64,000 nt of DNA, taken from the NCBI RefSeq assembly GCF_000300515.1, contig NZ_AMSI01000014.1:62001-126000 (forward strand). The letters run 5' to 3'. This DNA comes from Nitratireductor indicus C115 (lineage in GTDB: Bacteria; Pseudomonadota; Alphaproteobacteria; Rhizobiales; Rhizobiaceae). The translations under genes and the position numbers were made by a program. Below the pieces are notes generated by a model, which did not search any database, was not told where the DNA came from, and worked only from the letters and a program-made list of their open reading frames with translations. Shown in pieces: positions 26,032 to 38,501 of this stretch; the first letter of the stretch is position 1, and each line of letters starts with the position of its first letter.

Positions 26032-26466
26032 ATGGCTTTCACCCTGGAAAAAACCGCTGCGCCCATGGCGCGGGATCTCGACTTCCTGCAACGCAGCCTT
26101 TCCGATTTCAACGACAGCGATGTCGGGGCTTCAGGCAAGATGCCGCTGGCGATCTTCGTGCGTGACGACGAGGGCACGGTGCTTGCCGGCCTTTCCGGCT
26201 ACACCGCCTGGGGCTGGCTTTATGTCCAGTGGCTCTTCGTGTCGCAGGCGCTGCGTGGGGAAGGCATGGCGGGCCGTATGCTCGAGGAAGCCGAGGCGGA
26301 GGCGATCACCCGCGGCTGCCACGGCGCCTTCATCGACACGTTCAACCCGCAGGCGCTGAAAGCCTATATGCGGCAGGGCTACGAACCCTTCGGAGCACTT
26401 GCCGATTTTCCCGAGGGCCGCAGCCGGACTTTCCTCCAGAAAAAGCTTGCAGGGCGCGCGGAATAA
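26032..26466 (+). CDS. GNAT-family N-acetyltransferase
   Basis: A 144-residue acetyl-CoA-dependent acetyltransferase. The central strand-turn-helix LYVQWLFVSQALRGEGMAGRMLEEAE (residues about 63-88) includes the acetyl-CoA pyrophosphate loop (R-G-E-G-M-A-G, variant of Q/RxxGxG/A), and DTFNPQALKAYMRQGYEPFG near the C-terminus is the typical substrate/CoA end. Substrate unknown. The gene ends next to the anmK stop and may be convergent with that operon by chance. The ATG at 26032 is the first of the conserved part. Confidence 0.82.
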   Translation: MAFTLEKTAAPMARDLDFLQRSLSDFNDSDVGASGKMPLAIFVRDDEGTVLAGLSGYTAWGWLYVQWLFVSQALRGEGMAGRMLEEAEAEAITRGCHGAFIDTFNPQALKAYMRQGYEPFGALADFPEGRSRTFLQKKLAGRAE

Positions 26467-27594
26467 TCAGTCCGCAACCCTGCCGCCGCGCAAAGCCTCG
26501 GGTGCCCCCGTCGTGGTGGGAAAGCTGATCGGCATGCCGCGCAGCACGCGAACCGCGAGAAAGGCGAAACATTCCGCCTCGATCGCATCGCCGCGCCAGC
26601 CAACGGTTTCCGCCGGCACTGCCTCGACACCGGCGCGCTTCCCCAGCATCTTCATGATCGCCGGATTATGGCGACCGCCGCCGCAGACGATGAGGCGGCG
26701 CGGACGGTGTGGCAGAAGATCCAGCGCCTTGCCCACGGCGGAAGCCGTAAACGCCGTCAGCGTGGCGGCACCGGTCAATGCGTCCAACCCATCGGCCATG
26801 GAGGCGCCAAAATCAAAACGGTCGAGCGATTTCGGATAGGGTGCGGAAAGATAGGGATGCTTCAGGAGTTCAACGAGGCGGGCCTCGTCGACGCTGCCGG
26901 CAAGCGCCATCGCGCCGTCGCGATCCATCTCGCCGAGCCCGAGGCTTTTCACGAAATCGTTGATCGGCGCATTGGCGGGGCCGGTATCGAAGGCAATGAC
27001 GCCGTCCGCGCCATCCCACCAGGTGATGTTGGCGACACCGCCGAGATTGAGCACTGCCGTCTCGCCGCTGCGATCCACGTCACGCAGAAGGGCGGCGTGA
27101 TAGGCCGCTGAAAGCGGCGCGCCCTGACCGCCAGCCCGCATGTCCGCGGAGCGGAAATCATAGGCAATTTTGCAGCCCAAAAGCGCATGCATCAACGCTC
27201 CATCGCCGAGCTGGCGGGTCTCGCCGATGCGCCCCTTCTGCGGGGCGCGGTGAAGCACCGTCTGACCGTGGAAACCGACGATGCCGATATCCTGCATGTT
27301 CAGGCCCGCGCTCTCCACCAGATCGCGGACGGCCTGCGACTGGGCGCGCGTGAGAACCTCTTCGGCCTCACGAAATATAGCCGGCTCATCTCCCTCGAAA
27401 TTCCATTCGCGCGCCTCCTGCAATGTCTCTTCCAGGAGATCCCGGGTGGAGCGAGGATAAGGTGCCAGCGTGTACTTGCCGAAGCTTTCGATGCGTTCGC
27501 CGTCGGTTTTCAGGAGCGCCACATCGATATTGCCGTCGAGGACGGTTCCGGTCATCAGGCCAACGGCCCAGATCGGTTCGAAAGTCTGTCCCAT
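26467..27594 (-). CDS. anmK: Anhydro-N-acetylmuramic acid kinase
   Basis: Opens the 1,6-anhydro ring of anhydro-MurNAc and phosphorylates it to MurNAc 6-phosphate with ATP, a key peptidoglycan-recycling step. The 375-residue protein carries [10 protein letters not shown] near residue 12 (family GLMSGTSLDG), [30 protein letters not shown] and [12 protein letters not shown], all typical of AnmK within the ASKHA fold. AGGAGAA precedes the ATG. It ends the leftward array and lies nine bases after the serine hydrolase gene. Its product is the substrate of MurQ encoded at 34.1-35.1 kb, which ties the operon together. Confidence 0.94.
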
Positions 27595-27603
27595 GATGTT
27601 CTC

Positions 27604-28629
27604 CTAGGCTTGGCTGATGCGGTCTCCGACCATCTGGCGGAGAGTGGCGATGCCGCTGTCGAAATGGCGTGTGGGATGAATGCGGTTGGTCAGAAGCGTC
27701 CAGGCACGGCCATGCTCGAAATCGATCCAGAGCCCGGTCCCCGTGAAACCGGTATGGCCGATCGTACCGGCGCTGCACAACGCGCCGCCCGACCATCCTT
27801 CGTAAGGACGTTCCCAGCCATGGGTACGCTTTTCAGAAAGCGGGGTGCGCATGAGCGAGACTGCCACGTCGCCTTCCGCGTCACCGCGCATGAGGTCGTG
27901 CGCGAAACCGAGAATCGCGTCCGCCAGGCCGAACAGGCCGGCATGGCCAGCACCTTCCAGCGCCGAACAATTGTCGTCATGCACCTCGCCGCAGAGGATG
28001 CGGTGGCGCCAGGTGCAATCCTCCGTCGCCGCGCAATTTTCCGGCGGGGCGGAAAAGGCAAAGCCCGGACCGGCGTCGAACATGCGCAAACGCCTGCCCT
28101 CCAGCCGTTCCATGGCAAACCCCAGAAGGATGAAATTGATATCGGAATAGACAGGTTTTTCGAGCCTGCGCCATTCCCTCTGGAGAATGAAGGCCTGCAG
28201 AAGCTCGGGATCGCGGCCGTAGGTGTAGATCGGCTCCACGGAGGGGAATGGCGTCTGGTGACCCAGGCATTCGCGGAAGGTGACGCGCCGTTCCCAGGCG
28301 CCTGCATCATACTGACGCAGATCCGGCAGAACCGAGATCAGTGGTGCATCGAGATCGATGCGCCCGGCTTGAGCATAGGCGAGAATGCGCGGCGTGGTGA
28401 AGATGACCTTGGTGAGCGAAGCAAGATCGAACCAGCTGTCGACCGCCATGGCGCGCTTCATGGGAACCGTCTGGGCGTGGCCTACGGCCCGTAGCATCCT
28501 CGTTCCGGCAGCATCCACCAGCCCAAGCACCGCACCCGGAATGCGGCCTGCCTCAACGGCCTCTGCCACCGGCTCGAAGGCTCTTTCAAAGCGCTCTTCG
28601 AGATGATCAGACGCGTCTGCTCCGCCCAT
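27604..28629 (-). CDS. Beta-lactamase-fold serine hydrolase, possible muropeptide amidase (AmiE-like)
   Basis: A 341-residue class C beta-lactamase-fold protein with all three catalytic motifs: SLTK (71-74), Y-S-D (161-163) and H-T-G (292-294). No signal peptide is visible (MGGADASDHLEERF), so it should be cytosolic, which argues against an antibiotic lactamase or periplasmic penicillin-binding role. In Bacillus subtilis the MurNAc operon encodes a related-fold enzyme, AmiE, that removes peptides from MurNAc; a similar step on imported anhydro-muropeptides would fit here, but this is inference. ATG 28629 lies five bases after the ATPase gene stop. Confidence 0.75.
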   Translation of the reverse strand: MGGADASDHLEERFERAFEPVAEAVEAGRIPGAVLGLVDAAGTRMLRAVGHAQTVPMKRAMAVDSWFDLASLTKVIFTTPRILAYAQAGRIDLDAPLISVLPDLRQYDAGAWERRVTFRECLGHQTPFPSVEPIYTYGRDPELLQAFILQREWRRLEKPVYSDINFILLGFAMERLEGRRLRMFDAGPGFAFSAPPENCAATEDCTWRHRILCGEVHDDNCSALEGAGHAGLFGLADAILGFAHDLMRGDAEGDVAVSLMRTPLSEKRTHGWERPYEGWSGGALCSAGTIGHTGFTGTGLWIDFEHGRAWTLLTNRIHPTRHFDSGIATLRQMVGDRISQA

Positions 28630-28634
28630 CCCGC

Positions 28635-30377
28635 TCAAGCCTCCAGCCGCGCCCTGTGATCGGCACCGATGTCGCGCCACTCAGCGGGTGGCGGTTCGAA
28701 GCCGAGCGGACGCACCAGAGATGGCACCTGGCGCGTATCGAGCGTAAAATGCTCGCGCCGCCGGTCGATACTGGGTACTGCCGCGATAAGACTCTTCGTA
28801 TAGGAGTGTCGCGGGTCCGAGAGGATCGCCGCTGCATCACCTATTTCCACGATCTGGCCTGCATAAACCACCGCGATGCGATGCGCGATGCGCTCCACCA
28901 CCGCCATGTCATGCGAGACGAAGAGATAGGCGAGGCCGAAATCGTGTTGCAGATCGACCAACAACTCCAGCACCTTGGCCTGAACGGAGACATCGAGTGC
29001 TGAAACCGCCTCGTCCAGCACCAGAACGGACGGGTTGAGCATCAGGGCGCGTGCAATACACAGACGCTGGCGCTGCCCGCCGGAAAACTCGTGCGGATAG
29101 CGCTCCAGCGCATTCCTGGGCAGACCAACCCGATCCAGAAGCATTTCCATGCGTTGCTTGATTTCCGCATCCACCTTCCGGCCCGACGCGACGACAGGTT
29201 CGGCCAAAATGCTGTCGACGCGCAGGCGCGGGTTCAGCGAGGCGTAAGGGTTTTGGAACACCATCTGCACGGCATTGCGCTCCGGCTTTGCCGGGTCGTT
29301 CGAGCTGGCGGTGAAATCGCCGCGGATCGGCTGCACGAGGCCGAGAATGGCACGCGCGGTGGTGGACTTTCCCGAACCGCTCTCGCCGACAATGCCAAGC
29401 GTCTCACCCGGCATCAGGTCGAAATCCACTCCATCGACCGCATGCACTGCACCCGTCTGGCGACGCAGTAGGCCACCCGTCACGGGGAAGCGCACGGTCA
29501 GTCCCTCCACCTTCAGCGCCGGTGTGGCAGGCGTCTTCGGACGGCTGTAATCCCTGCGCGCTGCACGCCCCGCCTCGAAATGCGGCACAGCGCTCAGGAG
29601 ATGCTTCGTATAGGGATGTCTGGGCGTGTCGAGGATTTCATCGAGGCTGCCCTGTTCCACCGCCTCGCCGGCCTGCATGACCATGACCTTGTCGGCGATG
29701 CCCGCGACAAGACCGATATCGTGGGTGATGAAGATCATGCCCATATCGGTCTCGCGCTTCAATTCGGCAAGCAACGCCATGATCTGCGCCTGCACGGTGA
29801 CATCGAGCGCCGTGGTGGGCTCGTCGGCGATCAGTAAGCGCGGATTGCACGAGAGCGCGGTGGCGATCATCACGCGCTGGAGCATGCCGCCGGAGAGCTG
29901 ATGCGGACAGTATTTCAACCGGCGGGCAGCGTCCGGTATGCGCACGCGCTCAAGCGCGTCCCGGGCAGCAGCCTTCGCCTGACGACCCGTCAGGCCGCGA
30001 TGCAGGCGGAAGGATTCCTCAATCTGCTCGCCAATCGTCAGAACCGGGTTCAGCGACGTCATCGGCTCCTGAAAGATCATGCCGATTTCACCGCCACGGA
30101 TCTTCGTCAGTTCCCGCTCGCTTGCCCCCGCAAGATCTATCGCGGTTCCGTCGGCGCGCGTGAAATCGATGCGACCTCCGGTGATGCGGCCGCCGCCGAA
30201 ATCCACGAGACGGTTGATGGAAAGGGCGGTGACCGACTTGCCGGACCCGCTCTCGCCAACGATGGCGAGCGTTTCTCCCGCTGCGAGATCGAAGCTCACC
30301 CCATGGACGATTTCATTTGCTCTCGGATCGCGGCCAAAACCGACATGCAGGCCAGAGACGGAAAGAAGCGGCTTCAT
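28635..30377 (-). CDS. Peptide-type ABC transporter, fused double ATP-binding protein
   Basis: A 580-residue fusion of the two ATPases (DppD- and DppF-like) of a peptide/nickel-type ABC importer, as in YejF or GsiA. The first GESGSGKS Walker A is at 41-48 with LSGGMLQRVMIATAL and LLIADEPTTALD; the second Walker A lies near residue 335, followed by FSGGQRQRLCIARAL and LVLDEAVSALD. Each half ends with the oligopeptide-transporter C-terminal zone (DTPRHPYTKHLL and DPRHSYTKSLI). It powers the two permeases encoded just upstream; its start overlaps the stop of the second permease by four bases. Likely cargo is muropeptides, judged from neighbours. Confidence 0.92.
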   Translation of the reverse strand: MKPLLSVSGLHVGFGRDPRANEIVHGVSFDLAAGETLAIVGESGSGKSVTALSINRLVDFGGGRITGGRIDFTRADGTAIDLAGASERELTKIRGGEIGMIFQEPMTSLNPVLTIGEQIEESFRLHRGLTGRQAKAAARDALERVRIPDAARRLKYCPHQLSGGMLQRVMIATALSCNPRLLIADEPTTALDVTVQAQIMALLAELKRETDMGMIFITHDIGLVAGIADKVMVMQAGEAVEQGSLDEILDTPRHPYTKHLLSAVPHFEAGRAARRDYSRPKTPATPALKVEGLTVRFPVTGGLLRRQTGAVHAVDGVDFDLMPGETLGIVGESGSGKSTTARAILGLVQPIRGDFTASSNDPAKPERNAVQMVFQNPYASLNPRLRVDSILAEPVVASGRKVDAEIKQRMEMLLDRVGLPRNALERYPHEFSGGQRQRLCIARALMLNPSVLVLDEAVSALDVSVQAKVLELLVDLQHDFGLAYLFVSHDMAVVERIAHRIAVVYAGQIVEIGDAAAILSDPRHSYTKSLIAAVPSIDRRREHFTLDTRQVPSLVRPLGFEPPPAEWRDIGADHRARLEA

Positions 30378-31213
30378 GCGACGGCCCTCCGCGTCTTGGG
30401 ATCGAGAATGTCGCGCAAAGCATCACCCAGAAGGTTGAAGCCCAGAATGCCGATCATGATGGCGAGGCCGGGGAAGACCAGAAGCCAGGGCGCGGTCTCC
30501 ATCAGGTTGCGGCTGTCGCTCAACATGAGGCCGAGGGACGAGGCGGGAGGCTGGGTGCCCAGACCGAGGAAGCTCAGCCCCGCTTCCGTGAGCAGGCCCC
30601 AGGCGAGCGCCAGCGTTACCTGAACGGTCAACGGCGCGACGAGGTTGAGCATGAGATGACGCGTGAGGATATAGTGCCGGCTGGACCCGAAGGTGCGGGC
30701 GGCATCCACGAAATCCCGTGTCTTGAGCGACAGGGCCGGACCGCGCACGACCCGGGTGAAGATGGGTGTGTAGACGATGGCGATGGCCATCACGCTGGTC
30801 CAGGTTCCAGGCCCCACGACCGCAATGATAAGCAATGCCAGGAGAATGGCCGGGAACGCCAGCAACACGTCCATCACCCGCATGATGAGCCCGTCCCACC
30901 CTTTGCCGAACCACGCAGCAGCAAGACCGAGAACCGTACCGGCTGTGGCGGCCAGCGCGACGGAGGCAAAGGCGACCACGAAGGACTGGCCGATGCCGAC
31001 CATGAGACGGCTCGCCACGTCGCGGCCAAAGAGATCGGTCCCCATCCAGTAGGCGGCATTTGGCGCATGCAGCCGGTCTACGCGAAACTGCATCAGCGGA
31101 TCGTGCGGCGTGATGCCGGCCATGCCGAGAAAGGCGATCAGGATATAGAGCCCGACGATGGTGCCGCCGATGCGGCCGCTCGGATGGGCGAAGATGGCTT
31201 TCACGATACCCAT
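30374..31213 (-). CDS. Peptide-type ABC transporter permease, DppC/OppC-like
   Basis: A 279-residue inner-membrane permease with about six hydrophobic segments. DppC-type marks are HDPLMQ...GTDLFGRDVASRLMVGIGQSF in the N-terminal part and the EAA loop DAARTFGSSRHYILTRHLMLN near residue 175. The ATG (31213) overlaps the previous permease stop by one base (TGATG), and its stop overlaps the ATPase start, so the three are tightly coupled. The open frame upstream only shadows the partner gene. Confidence 0.92.
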   Translation of the reverse strand: MGIVKAIFAHPSGRIGGTIVGLYILIAFLGMAGITPHDPLMQFRVDRLHAPNAAYWMGTDLFGRDVASRLMVGIGQSFVVAFASVALAATAGTVLGLAAAWFGKGWDGLIMRVMDVLLAFPAILLALLIIAVVGPGTWTSVMAIAIVYTPIFTRVVRGPALSLKTRDFVDAARTFGSSRHYILTRHLMLNLVAPLTVQVTLALAWGLLTEAGLSFLGLGTQPPASSLGLMLSDSRNLMETAPWLLVFPGLAIMIGILGFNLLGDALRDILDPKTRRAVA

Positions 31214-32172
31214 CAGCGGTCTCCCAGCCGGATGCGCGGATCGAGCACCGCATAGGCGAGATCGACGAGCAGGTTGACGATCATGAAGTTCAACGCGATG
31301 AAGAGCACGCTGCCCTGAACCAAGGCATAATCGCGCTGCAGAATGGCATCGAGCACCATGCGGCCAAGCCCCGGCAGGGCGAAAATCTGTTCCACGATCA
31401 CCGCACCGCCAAGAAGATAACCGAACTCGACGCCACTCAACGTGACGACCGGTATCAGCGCATTGGGCAGGGCATGACGCCATATGACGCTCAATGCGGG
31501 GACGCCCTTGCTGCGGGCGGTGCGCACGTAGTCCTCGCTCAACACATCGAGCATGGAGGAGCGAGAAATGCGTGTTACGGATGCGGCGAAGGCGAAGCCC
31601 AGCGTGAGCGCGGGCAGGATGAGCTGCCCCAGATTCTCCAGCGGGTTCTCGAAAAACGGCGTGAAGGTGCCCATCACCGGCAGCACACCGAAGCCCACGG
31701 ACAGAATGTAGATGATCAGAAGACCGACGACGAAATTCGGCGTCGACTGTCCGATCATGGCTAGGATTCGTACGCCCAGATCGGAGGGTTTTTCGTTGCG
31801 CGTGGCGGCGAAGATGCCGGCGGGCAGGCCGATGGCCAGCGCGATCAGCATCGACAGCAGAGCAAGTTCCAGCGTCAGCGGAAAGCGCTCGAGAATGACA
31901 TCCAGAACCGGCTTGCCGTAGGTGACGGAAATGCCAAGGTCACCCCGCAGAACACCCATCAGCCAATGGCCGTATTGCACGGGCCAGCTCTTGTCGAGAC
32001 CGAAATAGGCTTCCAGCGCCGCACGCTGCTGGGGCGTCAGGAGCCCCGCTTCCGTGCCCAGCATCGCCGTGATGGCGTTACCCGGCACAAGGCGGATCGA
32101 AACGAATACGAGAATGGATACACCCAGCATGACCAGGGGAAAGGTCAGAAGCCTTCGGGTCAGATAATTCAT
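31213..32172 (-). CDS. Peptide-type ABC transporter permease, DppB/OppB-like
   Basis: A 319-residue permease beginning MNYLTRRLLTFPLVMLGVSILVF, the standard first helix of the DppB/OppB family, with an RLVPGNAITAMLG loop, and the EAA loop DYVRTARSKGVPALSVIWRHALPN near residue 200. About six membrane helices. It is separated from the upstream binding-protein gene by 223 bp that hold a long inverted repeat, a layout often used to make more binding protein than permease. Substrate inferred from context as muropeptides. Confidence 0.92.
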   Translation of the reverse strand: MNYLTRRLLTFPLVMLGVSILVFVSIRLVPGNAITAMLGTEAGLLTPQQRAALEAYFGLDKSWPVQYGHWLMGVLRGDLGISVTYGKPVLDVILERFPLTLELALLSMLIALAIGLPAGIFAATRNEKPSDLGVRILAMIGQSTPNFVVGLLIIYILSVGFGVLPVMGTFTPFFENPLENLGQLILPALTLGFAFAASVTRISRSSMLDVLSEDYVRTARSKGVPALSVIWRHALPNALIPVVTLSGVEFGYLLGGAVIVEQIFALPGLGRMVLDAILQRDYALVQGSVLFIALNFMIVNLLVDLAYAVLDPRIRLGDR

Positions 32173-32253
32173 GAAGGTTTCACCCCGTGTCCTTCAATTC
32201 GCAATCGTCTCGTGCTCCGGTACCCGGTTACGAGCATGGTCCCGTCTCCGCCA

Positions 32254-32372
32254 AGCGCCCTCGTGGTTCGACAAGCTCACCAAGAGGGCGACTGGAAGAC
32301 TGGCGCGTGAACGTCACAAAGCGCGACGTTTCAACGGCCCTCATGGTGAGCTTGTCGAACCACGAGGGCGCT
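32254..32372. repeat. REP-like inverted repeat, 36-bp arms
   Basis: The arm at 32254-32289 is the reverse complement of 32337-32372 except for one base, with a 47-bp spacer. Each arm contains TGGTTCGACAAGCTCACC, a core I recognise as a repeated palindromic element in alphaproteobacterial genomes. It lies between the binding-protein gene and the first permease gene, so a transcript would fold into a long stem protecting or ending the upstream mRNA. Confidence 0.75.
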
Positions 32373-32395
32373 CGGCACGAAAAGATGGCCGGCGA

Positions 32396-33919
32396 TCACT
32401 CGCCAACCGTCACCGTCGTCAGGCCGAACAGCGACCCGGTCGGCGATGGCACGAAGCCCGTCACGTTCTTCTGCTGGGCGGTGTAGCTGTAAGCGGTGTA
32501 GAGCCAGATCCAGGGCGAGACTTCCGCGAGATGCTTTTCGAATGCCGCGAAGATTTCCTTGCGCTTTTCAGGATCGGTTTCAACGCGCCCCTTCTGCATC
32601 AGATCGTCCAGCGTGTCGTCGATATAGTTGGCGACCTTCTGGAGGTTGCCGGCCTTGGTCCAGTAGCGATTGTACATGGAGTAGGGATCGGCGCGGCCGC
32701 CATTAAGCGCCACGGCCATGTCGAAATCGCCCTTCAGCCAGGTGTCGACATAGACGTTGAGCTCCATCATCTTGATGTCGAGCTTGATTCCGATCTCGGC
32801 AAGTTGCGACTGGATGACCTGAGCTTCGGCGGCAGCCGTGGGCGGCTCGCCGGTGGCGGCGATCACGGTCGCGGAAAAGCCGTCGGCATAGCCGGCATCG
32901 GCCATAAGCTTCTTGGCTTTTTCCACATCGCGCTCGTAGCAGAACAGCTGCGAGGGATCGCTCGCATAGGCCGGCATGGTGAGCGGGCCGGAGACCTTGC
33001 CCTCGCCGAGCAATGCGGTGTCGAGCACATCCTGCCTGTCCACGGCGCAGGAGATTGCCTGACGCACACCAAGCTCCGTCATGGGCTTGCGCGATGGATT
33101 GAGCTGGAGAACGTGATAGTTGAGCACCGGCGTGCGATCGAGCGTCAGGCTGGCCTCGTTCGGGACCAGCGTGGCCACCAGCGGATCGTTCAGCAGAGCA
33201 AAGTCGATCTGCTTGGTGCGCAGGGCAGCGAGAATCGCCGTCTCGTCGGGCAGGACGCTGACATTGATGCCATCGACCTTCACCTCGCCGCCGGCCCATT
33301 CCTTGTTGGCCGTCAGCACTTCCTTCGAATTCGGCTCCCACTGGTCAAGCTTGAAAGGACCCGAGCCGATTGCCTTGGTGCCGATGGTGCCGGCCTCGAT
33401 CTCGCTGGCGGGAACGACCGCAGCGTTGATGCTGGTCATGGCCGTCAGCAGCGGGACATCCGGCTGCGAGAGATTGAAGACGACAGTCGTATCGTCCGGC
33501 GTATCGATCGTTTCGATGGACAGGAAGTTGGCGCGGGCCGCTGCACCCGTCTCCTCAGCCATCAGGCGCTCGAATGAGGCCTTCACATCGGCAGCCGCGA
33601 CCTTGTTGCCGTTCTGGAACTTCGCTTCGGGATCGAGCTTGAAGCTCAGCGTCTTGCCATCCTCGGAAAATTCCCAGGAATCGGCAAGTGCCGGGATGAT
33701 CTTCAGGTCCTTGTCGAGACGCACAAGCGGCTCATAAACGAGTTCGAGAAGACGCAGCGACGAGAAAGCCGTCTGCTTGTGTGGATCGAGACCCGTCGCA
33801 TCCTGCGACCATGCCATGCGCAGTGTGGCCGCCGATGCGGTTGCGGAAAAGCCCGCAGCGCCCAGCGCCACCGCAAACGCCACCGTCGAAACCAGCGTTT
33901 TCGTGAAAGACTTACCCAT
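32396..33919 (-). CDS. Peptide-type ABC transporter substrate-binding protein (SBP family 5)
   Basis: A 507-residue periplasmic protein with a clear signal peptide: basic MGKSFTKTL, hydrophobic VSTVAFAVALGAAGF and cleavage after ASA near residue 30. The mature part follows the DppA/OppA pattern: LRMAWSQDATGLDPHKQT, LLELVYEPLVRLDKDLKIIPALADSWEFSEDGKTLSFKL and later REAISCAVDR-like VRQAISCAVDRQDVL. GGAG lies before the ATG. It supplies ligand to the DppB/DppC-like permeases and fused ATPase downstream. Peptide-type binding proteins can bind murein peptides (MppA is one), so muropeptide is a reasonable but unproven ligand. Confidence 0.92.
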   Translation of the reverse strand: MGKSFTKTLVSTVAFAVALGAAGFSATASAATLRMAWSQDATGLDPHKQTAFSSLRLLELVYEPLVRLDKDLKIIPALADSWEFSEDGKTLSFKLDPEAKFQNGNKVAAADVKASFERLMAEETGAAARANFLSIETIDTPDDTTVVFNLSQPDVPLLTAMTSINAAVVPASEIEAGTIGTKAIGSGPFKLDQWEPNSKEVLTANKEWAGGEVKVDGINVSVLPDETAILAALRTKQIDFALLNDPLVATLVPNEASLTLDRTPVLNYHVLQLNPSRKPMTELGVRQAISCAVDRQDVLDTALLGEGKVSGPLTMPAYASDPSQLFCYERDVEKAKKLMADAGYADGFSATVIAATGEPPTAAAEAQVIQSQLAEIGIKLDIKMMELNVYVDTWLKGDFDMAVALNGGRADPYSMYNRYWTKAGNLQKVANYIDDTLDDLMQKGRVETDPEKRKEIFAAFEKHLAEVSPWIWLYTAYSYTAQQKNVTGFVPSPTGSLFGLTTVTVGE

Positions 33920-34115
33920 GTTTTGCTCCCTCTAGAGAAGATTGGATGCCCTGCAGTCTCAAACCTTCCGTCATCCGATATCTGCTTATCTTTAGACCCG
34001 CTTGCCAATCCGGGAAACGGCGAACTGCCTGACGCCATCAGGCGAATGCGCCGAAACCCTTGTCTTCAGTGAAGTCCTGCGCGACCGGGCAGTTTCGGCC
34101 CGACCGCTGAATGCT

Positions 34116-35054
34116 CTAATTCCCTGCGGCCTGGTGCTGTCTCTCGTTGATGGCCTTTCGCAGAAAACCGCCGGCCCCAGCCAGCGCCTCGCGGGCCTCC
34201 TGCGCTTCAAGCCCGGTGATTGCCATCATGATCGCCAGCTTCACATCGCTGCCGGATGCCATGAGATGGTTCTTCGCCTCCTCGGCATCGCAGCCCGTCG
34301 CTTCCATAACAATGCGCTGGGCGCGCACGAAGAGTTTCTGATTGCTGATGGCGACATCGACCATCAGGTTCTCGTAAATCTTGCCCATGCGGATCATGCT
34401 GGCCGTGGACAACATGTTGAGAACGAGTTTCTGCGCCGTGCCCGATTTGAGCCGTGTCGAGCCGGTCAGAATCTCAGGGCCGACCACTGGGGCAATCGCG
34501 ATGTCCGCAATCTTCCCGATGACAGAGCCGGGATTGCAGGACAGCGCAATGGTGCCGGCTCCCACTTCCTTCGCGTATTTCAAGGCGCCGATCACGTAAG
34601 GCGTGCGGCCGCTGACGGCGATGCCGACCACCACGTCACGCGCCCCGAGCTTTACGTCCATGAGCGCCTGACGCCCTTCGTCGGGATCATCTTCCGAGCC
34701 TTCGGTGGCATGGGTCAGCGCATATTCGCCGCCGGCGATCAGTCCGAACACCATCTCTTCCGGCACGCTGAATGTGGGCGGGCATTCGGAAGCATCCAGA
34801 ACGCCGAGCCGGCCACTGGTGCCAGCACCGATGTAAATGAGGCGGCCGCCCTTGTGAAACGTCTCGACGATCCTGTCTACAGCAGCAGCGACTTCCGGCA
34901 GCACCTTTTCGACGGCGTGTGCGACGCCCTTGTCCTCATCGTTGATGAGCTTGAGGATTTCGGGAGTGCTTTGCAGGTCGATCTGCATCGTCCGGGGATT
35001 GCGCCCCTCCGACACCAGACTTCCCAGTTCGGACATCAACGCTTCTTCACTCAT
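34116..35054 (-). CDS. murQ: N-acetylmuramic acid 6-phosphate etherase
   Basis: Cleaves the lactyl ether of MurNAc 6-phosphate, giving GlcNAc 6-phosphate and D-lactate; cytosolic. The 312-residue protein has the SIS-domain motif [15 protein letters not shown] (76-90), where the last Glu aligns with the catalytic Glu83 of the E. coli enzyme, followed by PPTFSVP and [12 protein letters not shown]. The C-terminal helical part ([15 protein letters not shown]) is the usual MurQ tail. It lies 259 bp from the amino-sugar kinase gene, with a strong palindrome and a possible promoter in between, and 196 bp from the binding-protein gene. Confidence 0.96.
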
Positions 35055-35263
35055 GTCTGCTCTCGAAACTCTCTTACGAAACCTGGTCGATGGAAATGAA
35101 GCCGCAACGCCGGAACGAGCGGCCTCACCGGGATCATCAAGGGACGATGGCGCCGGAACGCCTCACGGCGCTCCGGACGCATCCGAAACAGCCCGCATCG
35201 AGCGGGGCCACGTCTGGCGCCGATTGTTGTTTTGACGCCTTCCCTGTTGTCCTGACTGAAAGG

Positions 35264-35290
35264 GGTATAATCGAAAATTCCAAGAGTCAA
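35264..35290 (-). promoter_or_regulatory. Possible promoter of murQ and the transporter operon
   Basis: On the minus strand TTGACT (35290-35285) and TATACC (35269-35264) resemble -35 and -10 elements. The spacer is 15 bp, shorter than the ideal 17, so this is tentative. The -35 element overlaps the edge of the palindrome at 35289-35325, which would suit repression. A matching TTGAGT-N15-TATATC pair occurs in front of murA. Confidence 0.4.
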
Positions 35291-35325
35291 TTCAGATTAG
35301 GAATAATGTATTCCTAATCTGAATT
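35289..35325. promoter_or_regulatory. 17-bp-arm palindrome with GGAATA-N3-TATTCC core (probable operator)
   Basis: Perfect inverted repeat: arms 35289-35305 and 35309-35325 around ATG. The core GGAATA-ATG-TATTCC (35300-35314) is repeated with a different spacer at 37536-37550 next to the RpiR-like gene. It overlaps the last codons of the kinase gene and lies just upstream of the putative murQ promoter. An RpiR/MurR operator is the best reading; the structure could also end the kinase transcript. Confidence 0.6.
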
Positions 35326-36219
35326 CCGCTCCTTGCGTTTCATGCCCTGCCGGGCAAGGATTATCGCTCCGGAAACGGCATCGCCATCCGCTGGCTTGAG
35401 GCGGCGGCGCACATCGGGAGAGAGCCAGGGTTCGAGCGGGCCGGACAGACCACCCAGAAGGGTGACCCGGGGCGCGCCCTGATCGAAAAGGCCGCGCACC
35501 AGCATATCGATCTGGGATGCCGCCATCTGCACGATGCGCCTGCCCGCAGCATCGCCCTGGTCGGCATGGCGCAGCACCATGGGCGCAAAGGTGGCGTAGT
35601 CGGTGGCGGTGGCGCGGTCCATCCAGTGAACCACCTCCGCCGGATCATTGTTGAAGCGGCGCAGCACCTCTCCCAGCAAGGGGCCACATTCGATGCGGCC
35701 ATCATACGCCTGCAATGCAAACCGCAATGTCATCAATCCGATATCGGCGCCGCTGCCCTCATCCGAGATCGGGAAGCCGTAGCCGCCCATGCGCAATTGC
35801 CGGCCGTTCACAATGCCGAGGCCCACGGAGCCCGTTCCGGCGATCACGATGGCGCCGTCGAGACCGGAATGCGCCCCGAGACAGGCACCAATGCCATCGC
35901 TGACGAAATCGATACTCGCGAAGGGATGCGGAATCTCCCGCAGCGCCTCGAGCGACCCCTTGCGCGTCATTCCGGCCAGACCGATGCCAGCACGCATATG
36001 TGATACAGCGTCTTGCGAAAGCCCCGCCTCGGCAATCGCCGCCTCGAAAGCCCGCGCAACCGAAGCCCAGGCTTCGGCGATGCCAAGCCGCGTGGTGGCC
36101 GGGCCGGACAGCCCCTGTCCCAACACCTCGCCGGCCTCGTTTTCAATGCGCGCGCGGCAGCCCGTACCGCCGCCATCGACACCGAGATAGTAATGTTCGT
36201 TTGCGGTCGCTTCGCTCAT
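35314..36219 (-). CDS. BadF/BadG-type amino-sugar kinase (GlcNAc/MurNAc kinase-like)
   Basis: A 301-residue ASKHA-fold kinase. GVDGGGT (13-19) is the phosphate-1 loop, IVIAGTGSVGLGI near 125 the phosphate-2 element and SDEGSGADIGL near 152 the family signature. Related enzymes include human NAGK and the bacterial MurK, which phosphorylate GlcNAc or MurNAc. Lying between murA and murQ, it would phosphorylate free amino sugars released from imported muropeptides; which one is unknown. The ATG follows the murA stop by three bases. The 3' end overlaps the operator-like palindrome. Confidence 0.85.
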   Translation of the reverse strand: MSEATANEHYYLGVDGGGTGCRARIENEAGEVLGQGLSGPATTRLGIAEAWASVARAFEAAIAEAGLSQDAVSHMRAGIGLAGMTRKGSLEALREIPHPFASIDFVSDGIGACLGAHSGLDGAIVIAGTGSVGLGIVNGRQLRMGGYGFPISDEGSGADIGLMTLRFALQAYDGRIECGPLLGEVLRRFNNDPAEVVHWMDRATATDYATFAPMVLRHADQGDAAGRRIVQMAASQIDMLVRGLFDQGAPRVTLLGGLSGPLEPWLSPDVRRRLKPADGDAVSGAIILARQGMKRKERNSD

Positions 36220-36222
36220 GAT

Positions 36223-37479
36223 CTAGTCGCGCAGCCTTTCGATATGGGCGCCGCACTGGGCGAGCTTGCGGTCGAGCTGCTCATACCCACGGTCGAGATG
36301 ATAGACCCGGTTGATGACGGTCTCTCCCTCGGCAGCAAGAGCTGCGAGCACCAGCGAAACCGATGCCCGCAAATCGGTGGCCATGACCTGAGCCCCCTTG
36401 AGAGGCTTGCCGCCGTGAATGACTGCGGTGGTACCCTGAAGCCTTATCTCAGCGCCAAGGCGTATCAGCTCGGGCACATGCATGAAGCGATTTTCGAAGA
36501 TGGTTTCCCGGATGAGCGACGTACCCTCCGCAATGCAGGCAAGCGCCATGAACTGCGCCTGAAGGTCGGTCGGGAAACCGGGATAAGGTTCGGTCGTTAT
36601 ATCGGCGGTTTGGAGCGGGCCGTTGCGTGACACGACGAGACCGCGGCTGCTTGGCCAGACATTCGTTCCCATCGCCTCAAGCAGCTGGATCACTGCCGCA
36701 AGGTTTTCAATCCGCGCATTGGTAAGTTCAAGCGTGCCGCCGGTGATGGCCGCGGCAACCGCGTAGGTGCCGGCCTCGATGCGGTCCGGAATGCCATGAT
36801 GCTTTGCCGGTTTCCATTCGGTTCCACCGGCGATCAGAATCCGGTGCGTGCCTGCACCTTCAATATGTGCGCCCATGGCGGCGAGACAGGCGGCAAGGTC
36901 CGCCACTTCCGGCTCACGTGCGGCGTTCAGGATTTCCGTTTCCCCGCTTGCCATGGTCGCGGCCATCATCGCGGTCTCGGTGGCGCCCACGGATGGCGAG
37001 GCGAGAACCACGCGCGCGCCCTTCAGGCCAGCCGATGCGCTGGCTACAATCAGGCCGTTTTCGATGTCGATGGAAGCGCCCAGCGCTTCGAGTGCCCTGA
37101 TATGCATGTCCACCGGACGCGCGCCGATGGCGCAGCCGCCCGGCAACGACACCCGCGCAGAACCGAAACGAGCAAGAAGCGGCGCCAAAAACAGCACCGT
37201 GGCCCGCATGCGCCGCACCGTGTCGTAAGATACTTCGCACGAACGAATAGAGCCCGCATCAATCGTTGTTGCATGCGCGCCGCGCTCCACCTCCGCTCCG
37301 TAGAGAGCCGCAACCTGGAGCATGTTGTCCACGTCCGAAACCTGCGGAAGGTTGGTGAGCTCCAGCGGATGGGGGCTGAGAAACGCCGCCGCGATCTGTG
37401 GCAAGGCGGCGTTTTTTGCGCCCGACACGGTGACCGTGCCCTGCAGTTTTTGCCCGCCCGTAATGCGCAATCTGTCCAT
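36223..37479 (-). CDS. murA: UDP-N-acetylglucosamine 1-carboxyvinyltransferase (MurA family)
   Basis: Transfers enolpyruvate from PEP to UDP-GlcNAc, first committed step of peptidoglycan synthesis. With the ATG at 37479 the protein has 418 residues and matches E. coli MurA numbering exactly: Lys22 and Asn23 in SGAKNAALP, and the fosfomycin-target Cys115 in [16 protein letters not shown] lies eight bases upstream of this ATG. A longer frame from GTG 37530 would run through the probable operator and is less likely. Placed at the head of a recycling operon under the RpiR-like regulator, which is unusual; whether it is the only murA of the genome cannot be seen. Confidence 0.93.
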
Positions 37480-37507
37480 GCCGCTCGCCTCCATCTTCGG
37501 AACTATT

Positions 37508-37550
37508 GATATATTCCGTTGCTCACTCACTCAACGGAATATATTATTCC
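37508..37550. promoter_or_regulatory. Operator region between murA and the RpiR-like regulator
   Basis: Two elements overlap. GGAATA-TAT-TATTCC (37536-37550) has the same six-base arms as the palindrome before murQ. A 12-bp inverted repeat, ATATATTCCGTT (37509-37520) with its complement at 37533-37544, extends the site. A TTGAGT (37534-37529) and TATATC (37513-37508) pair on the minus strand, spaced 15 bp, could be the murA promoter. Likely bound by the divergent RpiR protein. Confidence 0.6.
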
Positions 37551-37652
37551 TACATGAGGATCGGCGTTGCGGGCGGCTTCCCGATGCCCAGGCTGCAAGG
37601 CCAGTCACCGCCAGATTAAAACTGCCTCTCGCCACAGACCCGGAAGAGACTC

Positions 37653-38501
37653 ATGTCCATTCTCAAGATCATCAGCGCGAAACTGGACAGCATGGCGCCT
37701 GCCGACCGGCAGATCGGGCAGTTCATCCTCGACAATCCCGACGACATGTTGCGGCTCTCCTCGGCCGCTCTTGCCGCCGAAACGGGACGCAGCCAGTCCA
37801 GCGTGGTCAAGTTCAGCCAGAAGCTCGGCTATGACGGCTATCAGGATCTCAAGCTTGCCGTGAGCCAGGCCAATGCGCGGGAATGGTCCGTTCCCGCCGG
37901 CATGATCCACAGCACCATCGAGATGGACGACAGCTTTGGCGTGGTGCTGCAAAAGCTCATTGGCAGCAAGCTGCTCTCCATTCAGGAGACCATCGCAGCC
38001 AACAACGAGGCAGGCATAGGCAAAGCCCTCGACGCGCTGAACGCGGCTCCGCGCGTGCATATGGCAGGCGTGGGCGCTTCCTCTCTGGTGGCGCGGGATT
38101 TCAGCTACAAGCTCCAGAAGCTTGGGCGCTACGCCTTTCACGACAGCGACAGCCATGTGCAGATGGGCAGCGTCTCGGCACTGGGGACCGGCGACGTGCT
38201 GTTCGCCCTCTCCTATTCAGGCACAAGCATCGAGACGCTGCGGATCGCCGAACTTGCGGCGAAACGCGGCGCGACTGTGATTTCGGTAACGCGGCTTCAG
38301 GAAAACCCGCTGATGAATGTCGCCGATATACGGCTCTACACCGTGGCGGACGAGGAACGGGCGCGCTCTTCCGCCATCACCGCGCGCGACGCGCAGCTGG
38401 CGCTGACGGACCTTCTGTTCCTGCTGCTTGTTCAACGCCAGCCGGACGCCAACGACTATGTGCACAACAGCGAGGCATCGGTTGCCGTCCTGAAGCTGTG
38501 A
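37653..38501 (+). CDS. RpiR/MurR-family transcriptional regulator
   Basis: A 282-residue regulator with the two-domain RpiR plan: an N-terminal helix-turn-helix (residues about 1-75, including LAAETGRSQSSVVKFSQKLGYDGYQDLKL) and a C-terminal SIS phosphosugar-binding domain (about 120-260, with VGASSLVARDFSYKLQKLGR and ALSYSGTSIETLRIAELAAKRGATVISVT). MurR of E. coli, same family, controls murQP and responds to MurNAc 6-phosphate; here the same ligand would be made by AnmK and consumed by MurQ. It is divergent from murA across an intergenic region with palindromes repeated before murQ. Confidence 0.9.
   Translation: MSILKIISAKLDSMAPADRQIGQFILDNPDDMLRLSSAALAAETGRSQSSVVKFSQKLGYDGYQDLKLAVSQANAREWSVPAGMIHSTIEMDDSFGVVLQKLIGSKLLSIQETIAANNEAGIGKALDALNAAPRVHMAGVGASSLVARDFSYKLQKLGRYAFHDSDSHVQMGSVSALGTGDVLFALSYSGTSIETLRIAELAAKRGATVISVTRLQENPLMNVADIRLYTVADEERARSSAITARDAQLALTDLLFLLLVQRQPDANDYVHNSEASVAVLKL

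What the first reader, a model, noticed from the sequence alone, without database searches (positions are those of the whole stretch)
26467..38501. Dedicated muropeptide import and recycling regulon (anmK, amidase-like hydrolase, peptide ABC importer, murQ, BadF kinase, murA, RpiR regulator)
Ten neighbouring genes link a peptide-type ABC transporter with all the cytosolic steps from anhydro-MurNAc to GlcNAc 6-phosphate. Order and overlaps suggest two leftward transcripts (murA-kinase; murQ to anmK) and a divergent MurR-like gene. Individual families are known; what is unusual is an importer, an AmiE-like hydrolase and a MurA enzyme in one regulon. NagZ, NagA/NagB and AmpD are not here.
Basis: partly seen in the sequence, partly recalled or inferred. 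Interest (0 to 1): 0.8.

Follow-up and report, generated by a model that had tools for sequence, protein, structure and literature searches.

The report
MurR-controlled cell-wall-fragment import operon
A soil-bacterium gene cluster that very probably imports broken-down cell-wall pieces and turns their muramic acid back into building blocks under one switch, with an importer type that keeps the same gene partners in two distantly related actinomycetes.

Summary
An exact palindrome, GGAATA-N3-TATTCC, occurs twice in the whole 4.99-Mb genome, once before murA and once before murQ. The divergent regulator is 40% identical to E. coli MurR. The unit SBP-permease-permease-dual ATPase-serine hydrolase-AnmK is contiguous in 75 of 80 named Hyphomicrobiales loci; four of the other five stop at contig ends. 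Relatives of about 41% identity in two actinomycetes keep importer, MurQ, AnmK, hydrolase and RpiR together in shuffled order. A peptidoglycan-fragment substrate, most likely anhydroMurNAc-peptide, is by far the best reading. No binding or growth test exists. The genome also carries YejBEF with a YepA-like protein, NagZ, NagA, an AmpD candidate and AmgK/MurU-like proteins, and no AmpG hit. So this is a second importer, probably inducible, not the only one. The murA is a second, deeply divergent paralogue with its catalytic residues kept. New variant of the known MurNAc divergon: an ABC importer, AnmK, a kinase and MurA2 in place of the PTS permease.

The parts
26467..27594 (-). anmK, anhydro-MurNAc kinase; the only AnmK hit in the genome
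   Evidence: NCBIfam NF007141 476.8 bits, cut-off 352; one hit in own genome
27604..28629 (-). serine hydrolase of class-C beta-lactamase family, PBP4B/YfeW-like; probable cytosolic MurNAc-L-Ala amidase (activity inferred)
   Evidence: PF00144 93 bits; invariant SxxK, YSDxN, HTGFTG in 18 aligned rows, no signal peptide by eye; 26% identical to E. coli YfeW
28635..30377 (-). dual-domain ABC ATPase of the importer
   Evidence: two ABC_tran stretches; GsiA 666 bits and YejF 554 bits, both under cut-off
30374..31213 (-). importer permease C
   Evidence: BPD_transp_1; start overlaps the permB stop by one base, end overlaps the ATPase start by four
31213..32172 (-). importer permease B
   Evidence: BPD_transp_1
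32396..33919 (-). periplasmic substrate-binding protein, SBP_bac_5, with Sec-type signal peptide (read by eye)
   Evidence: 292 bits; 77-88% identical orthologues in named Hyphomicrobiales
34116..35054 (-). murQ, MurNAc-6P etherase
   Evidence: TIGR00274 431.7 bits, cut-off 302; 55% identical to E. coli MurQ
35300..35314 (.). operator GGAATA-N3-TATTCC upstream of murQ
   Evidence: exact; one of two exact sites in the genome; 0-1 mismatch in 87 of 87 scanned upstream regions
35314..36219 (-). BadF-type amino-sugar kinase, probable MurNAc/GlcNAc kinase
   Evidence: PF01869 137 bits; NagK model 257.7 bits under cut-off 370; 148 bits to 1zc6 and 74 bits to MurNAc/GlcNAc kinase 8zo3
36223..37479 (-). 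murA2, second UDP-GlcNAc enolpyruvyl transferase
   Evidence: 541 bits, cut-off 392.7; housekeeping copy on the same contig outside the window; separate clade
37536..37550 (.). operator GGAATA-N3-TATTCC between the regulator and murA2
   Evidence: exact; 0-1 mismatch in 78 of 78 scanned regions
37653..38501 (+). MurR-like RpiR/SIS regulator, presumed repressor
   Evidence: HTH_6 and SIS; 40% identical to E. coli MurR

Best explanation
This is a MurR-type regulon for taking in and using peptidoglycan turnover products. The binding protein and ABC importer bring MurNAc-bearing fragments, most likely anhydroMurNAc-peptides, from the periplasm into the cell. A cytosolic serine hydrolase removes the peptide. 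AnmK turns anhydroMurNAc into MurNAc-6P. The BadF kinase phosphorylates free MurNAc and/or GlcNAc. MurQ removes lactate to give GlcNAc-6P, which the genome's NagA can pass on. MurNAc-6P lifts the MurR-like repressor from two palindromic operators, so the importer, the enzymes and a second MurA rise together when wall fragments arrive. It is a second, inducible route beside YejBEF-YepA. Shown here: gene content, operator-like sites, linkage, paralogy. Inferred: substrate, amidase activity, kinase substrate, effector, inducibility, and the role of MurA2.
For: Families and cut-offs. Regulator 40% identical to MurR and MurQ 55% to E. coli MurQ; E. [quoted passage not shown] Operators: two exact sites in the own genome, both here; 0-1 mismatch in 78 of 78 and 87 of 87 promoter regions, against a best of 2 in base shuffles; exact site in 10 of 12 genomes with MurQ over cut-off against 25 of 285 others, the reversed control pattern being in 13 of the 297 (my count). 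Importer, hydrolase and anmK contiguous in 75 of 80 named loci. Actinomycete relatives keep the set: Nonomuraea SBP 40%, permeases 49%, ATPase 49%, MurQ 51%, AnmK 35%, hydrolase 27%, RpiR 35%; Embleya SBP 41%, MurQ 45%, AnmK 33%, hydrolase 28%, RpiR 33%, plus an epimerase-like protein. In 3 of the 89 loci (L038, L039, L041) a DgcA / L-Ala-D/L-Glu epimerase-type gene lies beside the core (the L041 one is over the DgcA cut-off).
Against: No binding, transport or growth data. The binding-protein model was poor (pLDDT 54.7), so the pocket could not be read. SBP_bac_5 also holds chitin-oligosaccharide, opine and nickel binders, so the family does not say peptide. L068 keeps importer and murQ without hydrolase and anmK in the 6.3 kb held downstream. 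L036 (G202) has the importer core with no operator-like site in its 19.9 kb and no MurQ over cut-off in the genome. In G154 the core and murQ lie 2.2 Mb apart and there is no exact operator; G151 has none either. The hydrolase is far under the PBP4B cut-off (48.1 against 385). The 80 loci are the best 80 of 160, mostly Mesorhizobium and Rhizobium by title, so they are not independent, and a few gene matches in them are partial (L045, L070).
Confidence: 0.74

Rival explanations
1. The importer takes peptide-free sugars (MurNAc, anhydroMurNAc or GlcNAc-MurNAc), and the hydrolase does something else, such as ester or lactam cleavage.
For: Binding proteins of this family include a chitin-oligosaccharide binder. 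In Chelatococcus a 35% relative sits with NagA, a NagB-II-like protein, a MurQ-like protein and the kinase, with no AnmK or hydrolase match in 19 kb. In G151 what looks by eye like a sugar-type ABC importer takes the place beside murQ, hydrolase and kinase homologues.
Against: At 40% identity and above the importer stays with the hydrolase and AnmK in all but one uncut locus examined. Epimerase-type genes for D-Glu peptides or N-acetyl-D-Glu lie beside it in 3 of 9 unnamed loci and in Embleya, though in 0 of 80 named loci.
Confidence: 0.18
2. Same machinery, but its job is to eat foreign wall debris as carbon and nitrogen rather than to recycle the cell's own wall.
For: Own-wall import could be done by the YejBEF/YepA-like set present. 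The regulon looks inducible. It is patchy, 10 of 297 genomes, and sits on a 2.08-Mb plasmid in R. tropici.
Against: AnmK acts on anhydro sugars made by lytic transglycosylases (recalled). MurA2 points to rebuilding rather than eating. Neither is decisive.
Confidence: 0.45
3. An ordinary oligopeptide or glutathione importer that lies in the operon by chance.
For: Best whole-length ATPase model is GsiA, and the permeases score below cut-off on peptide and nickel models. A 28-31% relative in Deinococcus sits by peptide-type genes with no MurNAc gene in the stretch.
Against: Co-linkage over two phyla with changed order and the operators at the murQ promoter, upstream of the importer genes.
Confidence: 0.05

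Closest known systems
E. coli MurNAc divergon murR | murQ-murP-yfeW (PMC5061867, passages)
   Same: Divergent MurR, MurQ, a transporter and a YfeW-type serine hydrolase; a two-mismatch copy of the palindrome in the intergenic region
   Different: ABC importer in place of the PTS permease; AnmK, a kinase and a second MurA added; hydrolase without visible signal peptide
B. subtilis murQ-murR-murP-amiE-nagZ-ybbC (PMC5061867, passages)
   Same: MurQ, MurR, transporter and MurNAc-L-Ala amidase in one cluster
   Different: PTS importer, extracellular AmiE and NagZ; that AmiE has the beta-lactamase fold is recalled and its sequence was not compared here
YejBEF-YepA of Agrobacterium tumefaciens (PMC9790009, outline, passages, sections 10 and 11)
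   Same: ABC importer with a YejF-type ATPase and a YejA-like binding protein for muropeptides in Hyphomicrobiales
   Different: Another subfamily: binding protein only 20-25% identical, in partial alignments, to the three Yej-type proteins of this genome; the published binding protein is encoded apart, and the paper has no occurrence of 'murQ'; here all is in one regulon
AnmK-MupP-AmgK-MurU route of Pseudomonas, A. tumefaciens and Caulobacter (PMC9790009, PMC11980594, passages)
   Same: AnmK feeds MurNAc-6P; AmgK- and MurU-like proteins are also in this genome
   Different: MurQ branch; no MurQ was found in Caulobacter (PMC11980594) and the A. tumefaciens passages read name the AmgK/MurU route

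Membership tests
MurR/MurQ MurNAc divergon | MurQ etherase | tested here: met
   431.7 bits, cut-off 302
MurR/MurQ MurNAc divergon | divergent MurR-type regulator with palindromic site in the shared intergenic region | tested here: met
   40% to MurR, sites; but under the MurR equivalog cut-off, 180 against 408, and the neighbour across the intergenic region is murA2, not murQ
MurR/MurQ MurNAc divergon | PTS permease MurP in the operon | tested here: not met
   ABC importer genes occupy the place; the rest of the genome was not searched for MurP
MurR/MurQ MurNAc divergon | MurNAc-6P as inducer | not testable with these tools
   published for E. coli (PMC5061867, passages)
YejBEF-YepA importer | YejB/YejE/YejF and YejA/YepA-type binding protein | tested here: not met
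   YejB model 125 against 445, YejF 554 against 834, the other permease 77 against 439; SBP 20-25% identity
AmpG | MFS permease | tested here: not met
   cluster has an ABC importer; no TIGR00901 hit in own genome
YfeW/AmiE-type serine hydrolase | SxxK, YSDxx, GHAGLF, GHTGxxG motifs | tested here: met
   the motif set was chosen by eye, and the G151 homologue shows only two of them
YfeW/AmiE-type serine hydrolase | score over the PBP4B equivalog cut-off; exported | tested here: not met
   48.1 against 385; no signal peptide by eye in sampled orthologues
AmpD amidase | Amidase_2 domain | tested here: not met
   PF00144 only; one Amidase_2 protein elsewhere in the genome
MurNAc kinase MurK | phosphorylates MurNAc | tested here: inconclusive
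   sequence only: 74 bits to 8zo3, 148 bits to probable NagK 1zc6; a separate BadF-type kinase, 37% identical, lies by nagA
MurA | family score and catalytic residues (numbers recalled) | tested here: met
   541 bits; K22, N23, C115, R120, D305, R331, R371, R397 kept in 20 of 20 rows, four of them duplicates

The most novel reading that the evidence does not exclude
A cross-phylum family of dedicated muropeptide ABC importers, co-inherited with AnmK, MurQ and a cytosolic amidase. In Hyphomicrobiales it is wired through MurR to a second MurA, so that the wall-breakdown product MurNAc-6P directly raises the first committed step of new wall synthesis: a feed-forward damage-to-repair circuit. In actinomycetes the same family could fill the missing-importer gap.
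Probability: 0.33. Interest if true: 0.82.

Novelty: new variant of a known kind. Interest (0 to 1): 0.64.

Why it matters
How MurNAc fragments cross the inner membrane is open in several groups: S. coelicolor has MurQ but no MurP (PMC5061867, passages), and a mycobacterial study speaks of an unknown transporter (PMC13041923, passages). Here an importer family is tied by operon and operator to the MurNAc pathway in Alphaproteobacteria, and by linkage in two actinomycetes. The operator also seems to put a MurA enzyme under a wall-turnover regulator, which would let a cell answer wall breakdown with new synthesis. Both claims can be tested with gene deletions in a harmless rhizobium.

Tried and rejected
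AlphaFold2 of the binding protein (pLDDT 54.7) and of the hydrolase (pLDDT 53.8): both poor, probably because the 26- and 18-row alignments hold close relatives only; no fold search was run on them. Sequence comparison with solved structures placed the binding protein in its superfamily without fixing the ligand. Inserted genes between kinase and murQ in some Rhizobium loci looked incidental by eye. The murQ-to-binding-protein region has no operator, 0 of 88 at two mismatches or fewer, so a third regulated promoter there was dropped. The hypothesis that the importer is YejBEF was rejected on scores and because the genome has a separate YejBEF. AmpG was rejected. The E. coli MurR paper PMC2566201 is not held, so the published E. 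coli operator could not be compared. MupP, MurP, NagB and LD-carboxypeptidase were not searched. The YepA assignment rests on gene position: Atu1774 itself was not available, and RgsG was not looked for.
Full report
What is there. The ten genes and their coordinates check out. On the minus strand run murA2, a BadF-type kinase, murQ, a binding protein, two permeases, a dual ATPase, a serine hydrolase and anmK; an RpiR-family regulator lies divergently. The two permease genes overlap by one base, the second permease and the ATPase by four. Better starts are ATG 28629 for the hydrolase and ATG 37479 for MurA. The window lies in a 4.99-Mb genome. The best named hits of the binding protein are Nitratireductor (83-88% identical), so the host is probably that genus or near it.

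One regulon. A palindrome search in the promoter regions found GGAATA-N3-TATTCC. The own genome has exactly two exact copies, both here: before murQ and between the regulator and murA2. In 78 regulator-murA (or regulator-kinase) regions and 87 upstream-of-murQ regions the best site has 0 or 1 mismatch (40 exact + 38 one-off; 79 + 8). Of 20 base shuffles of each region, none did better than 2 mismatches. The murQ-SBP region has none at two mismatches or fewer, 0 of 88. These counts include the window, and 89 loci (L033-L121) were available; loci without the needed genes, and L038 for the murQ region, were left out. Some unnamed and named loci look like the same genome (equal contig lengths), so the rows are not independent. 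In 297 genomes of the order the exact palindrome is in 35, and its reversed control in 13 (my count). It is in 10 of 12 genomes with MurQ over cut-off, where all 13 sites lie at the murQ or murA2 promoter by position, and in 25 of 285 others. E. coli murR-murQ holds a two-mismatch copy; so do 33 of 5,060 shuffled regions of our own loci, and the E. coli region is richer in A+T, so that likeness is only suggestive. The regulator is 40% identical to MurR. Against: in L036 no such site lies within 19.9 kb around the core, and G154 has none exact in the genome.

The importer belongs with the muropeptide enzymes. In 80 named loci (the best 80 of 160 candidates, so biased to close relatives) all six genes from the binding protein to anmK are contiguous, in order and on one strand in 75; in L045 and L070 some of these matches are partial. 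Four more loci are cut by contig ends. L068 lacks the hydrolase and anmK in the 6.3 kb held after the ATPase. murQ is in 80 of 80, the regulator in 74, the kinase in 73 and murA2 in 73, of which three are partial matches (L089, L108, L115); some absences are contig ends. The nine unnamed loci keep the six-gene core in 9 of 9. In genomes of the unnamed family f6 (my guess: Devosiaceae) the core is kept while the rest changes: a DgcA / L-Ala-D/L-Glu epimerase-type gene beside it (L038, L039, L041; none in the 80 named loci), or a NagZ-like gene plus another peptide-type importer beside murQ (L172, L174, L185; the L172 one scores 197.3 against cut-off 207). In G154 the core and murQ are 2.2 Mb apart. 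In G202 the only exact operator lies between the NagZ-like gene and the regulator. In G151 what looks by eye like a sugar-type ABC importer (no family search run) sits with murQ, a hydrolase homologue, a kinase homologue and a MurR-like gene.

Across phyla. A search of the plasmid collection with the binding protein gave 17 records, 15 Rhizobium or Allorhizobium and 2 actinomycetes of about 41% identity. I opened three of the 17. R. tropici CIAT 899 has the full cluster with both operators, one exact and one a one-mismatch form. Nonomuraea gerenzanensis has RpiR | SBP-permease-permease-MurQ-AnmK-hydrolase-dual ATPase. Embleya sp. has an epimerase-like protein, AnmK and hydrolase opposite SBP-permease-permease-ATPase-ATPase-RpiR-MurQ. 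The palindrome is in neither. AnmK in both is over an equivalog cut-off. MurQ of Nonomuraea is over TIGR00274; that of Embleya is under it (287 against 302) but over the subfamily model. A second search with the Embleya protein gave 19 records, adding two weaker ones: Deinococcus (28-31%) with no MurNAc genes nearby, and Chelatococcus (33-35%) with NagA, a NagB-II-like protein, a MurQ-like protein, a 61% identical kinase and a murA2-like match in two frames. So, on these few records, linkage to AnmK and hydrolase holds at about 40% identity and fades below.

The rest of the genome. One AnmK; NagZ over cut-off; NagA next to a BadF-type kinase 37% identical to the cluster kinase; one Amidase_2 protein; TsaE-AmgK fusion and MurU-like protein, both under the AmgK and MurU equivalog cut-offs but best matched there; YejB and YejE over cut-off and YejF just under (787 against 834), next to two YejA-type proteins; a third one beside a DsbA-like gene, the position described for YepA (PMC9790009, section 11). 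No AmpG hit. The cluster importer is therefore probably an extra route.

MurA2. The genome has two MurA over cut-off. Of 18 genomes compared, the 5 with murA in the cluster have two, the other 13 one. In a tree of 39 rows (35 different) the cluster copies form one clade (100/99) apart from the housekeeping clade (99/97); the window's copy is 50-55% identical to the housekeeping copies. Catalytic residues are kept; K160 is S or A and V161 is P in the cluster clade. Residue numbers are recalled. What that changes is unknown.

Mechanism. I read it as an inducible salvage route: import, peptide removal, AnmK or kinase, MurQ, then NagA outside the cluster, with MurA2 raised at the same time. The strongest inference is the substrate class; the weakest is the purpose of MurA2 and whether the wall eaten is the cell's own.

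Prior work. Searches in the held PMC library found YejBEF-YepA and E. coli, Gram-positive, mycobacterial and Caulobacter work, but no description of this cluster in the listings and passages I saw. Passages were read in PMC5061867, PMC11980594, PMC13041923, PMC11547076 and PMC6593405, and outline, passages and two sections of PMC9790009. Subscription papers and databases such as RegPrecise were not searched, so prior mention there is possible.

Noticed in passing
window 32263-32363: Near-perfect long hairpin between the binding-protein and permease genes (stretch folds at -125 kcal/mol, z -9.2). In the window only its two arms match; whether it recurs in the genome was not tested. It could set a high binding-protein to permease ratio.
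   Followed up: partly
window 26032-26466 (+): GNAT acetyltransferase convergent with anmK, present in 38 of 80 named loci. GNATs also lie in related clusters: L172 beside the NagZ-like gene, Chelatococcus L201 and in one frame with an epimerase-like domain in Embleya L198:3607-6168. Might act on D-Glu or muramyl compounds.
   Followed up: partly
L201:3654-5787: Chelatococcus plasmid pCO-6: murA2-like match (60-64%, falls in two frames) next to a 61% identical kinase, by nagA, a nagB-II-like and a murQ-like gene. The murA2-kinase pair may travel as a unit.
   Followed up: partly
L171, L172, L174, L185: Family-f6 genomes have a NagZ-like gene with a different peptide-type ABC importer (L172 binding protein about 23-24% identical to ours) near the MurR-like gene; in L172, L174 and L185 what looks by eye like a sugar-type ABC importer is on the other side. 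Possible disaccharide-peptide importer.
   Followed up: partly
L187:3508-11505: G151: MurR-like gene, murQ, an importer that looks sugar-type by eye, hydrolase and BadF kinase homologues in one cluster; a candidate MurNAc importer of another type.
   Followed up: no
own genome L195:4319-7172: BadF-type kinase, a GntR-like regulator (by eye) and NagA in a row, near what looks by eye like a sugar-type ABC importer; probable GlcNAc pathway.
   Followed up: partly
L068:15169-21515: Mesorhizobium sp. LNHC252B00 keeps importer, murQ and murA2 but has no hydrolase or anmK match in the stretch held.
   Followed up: partly
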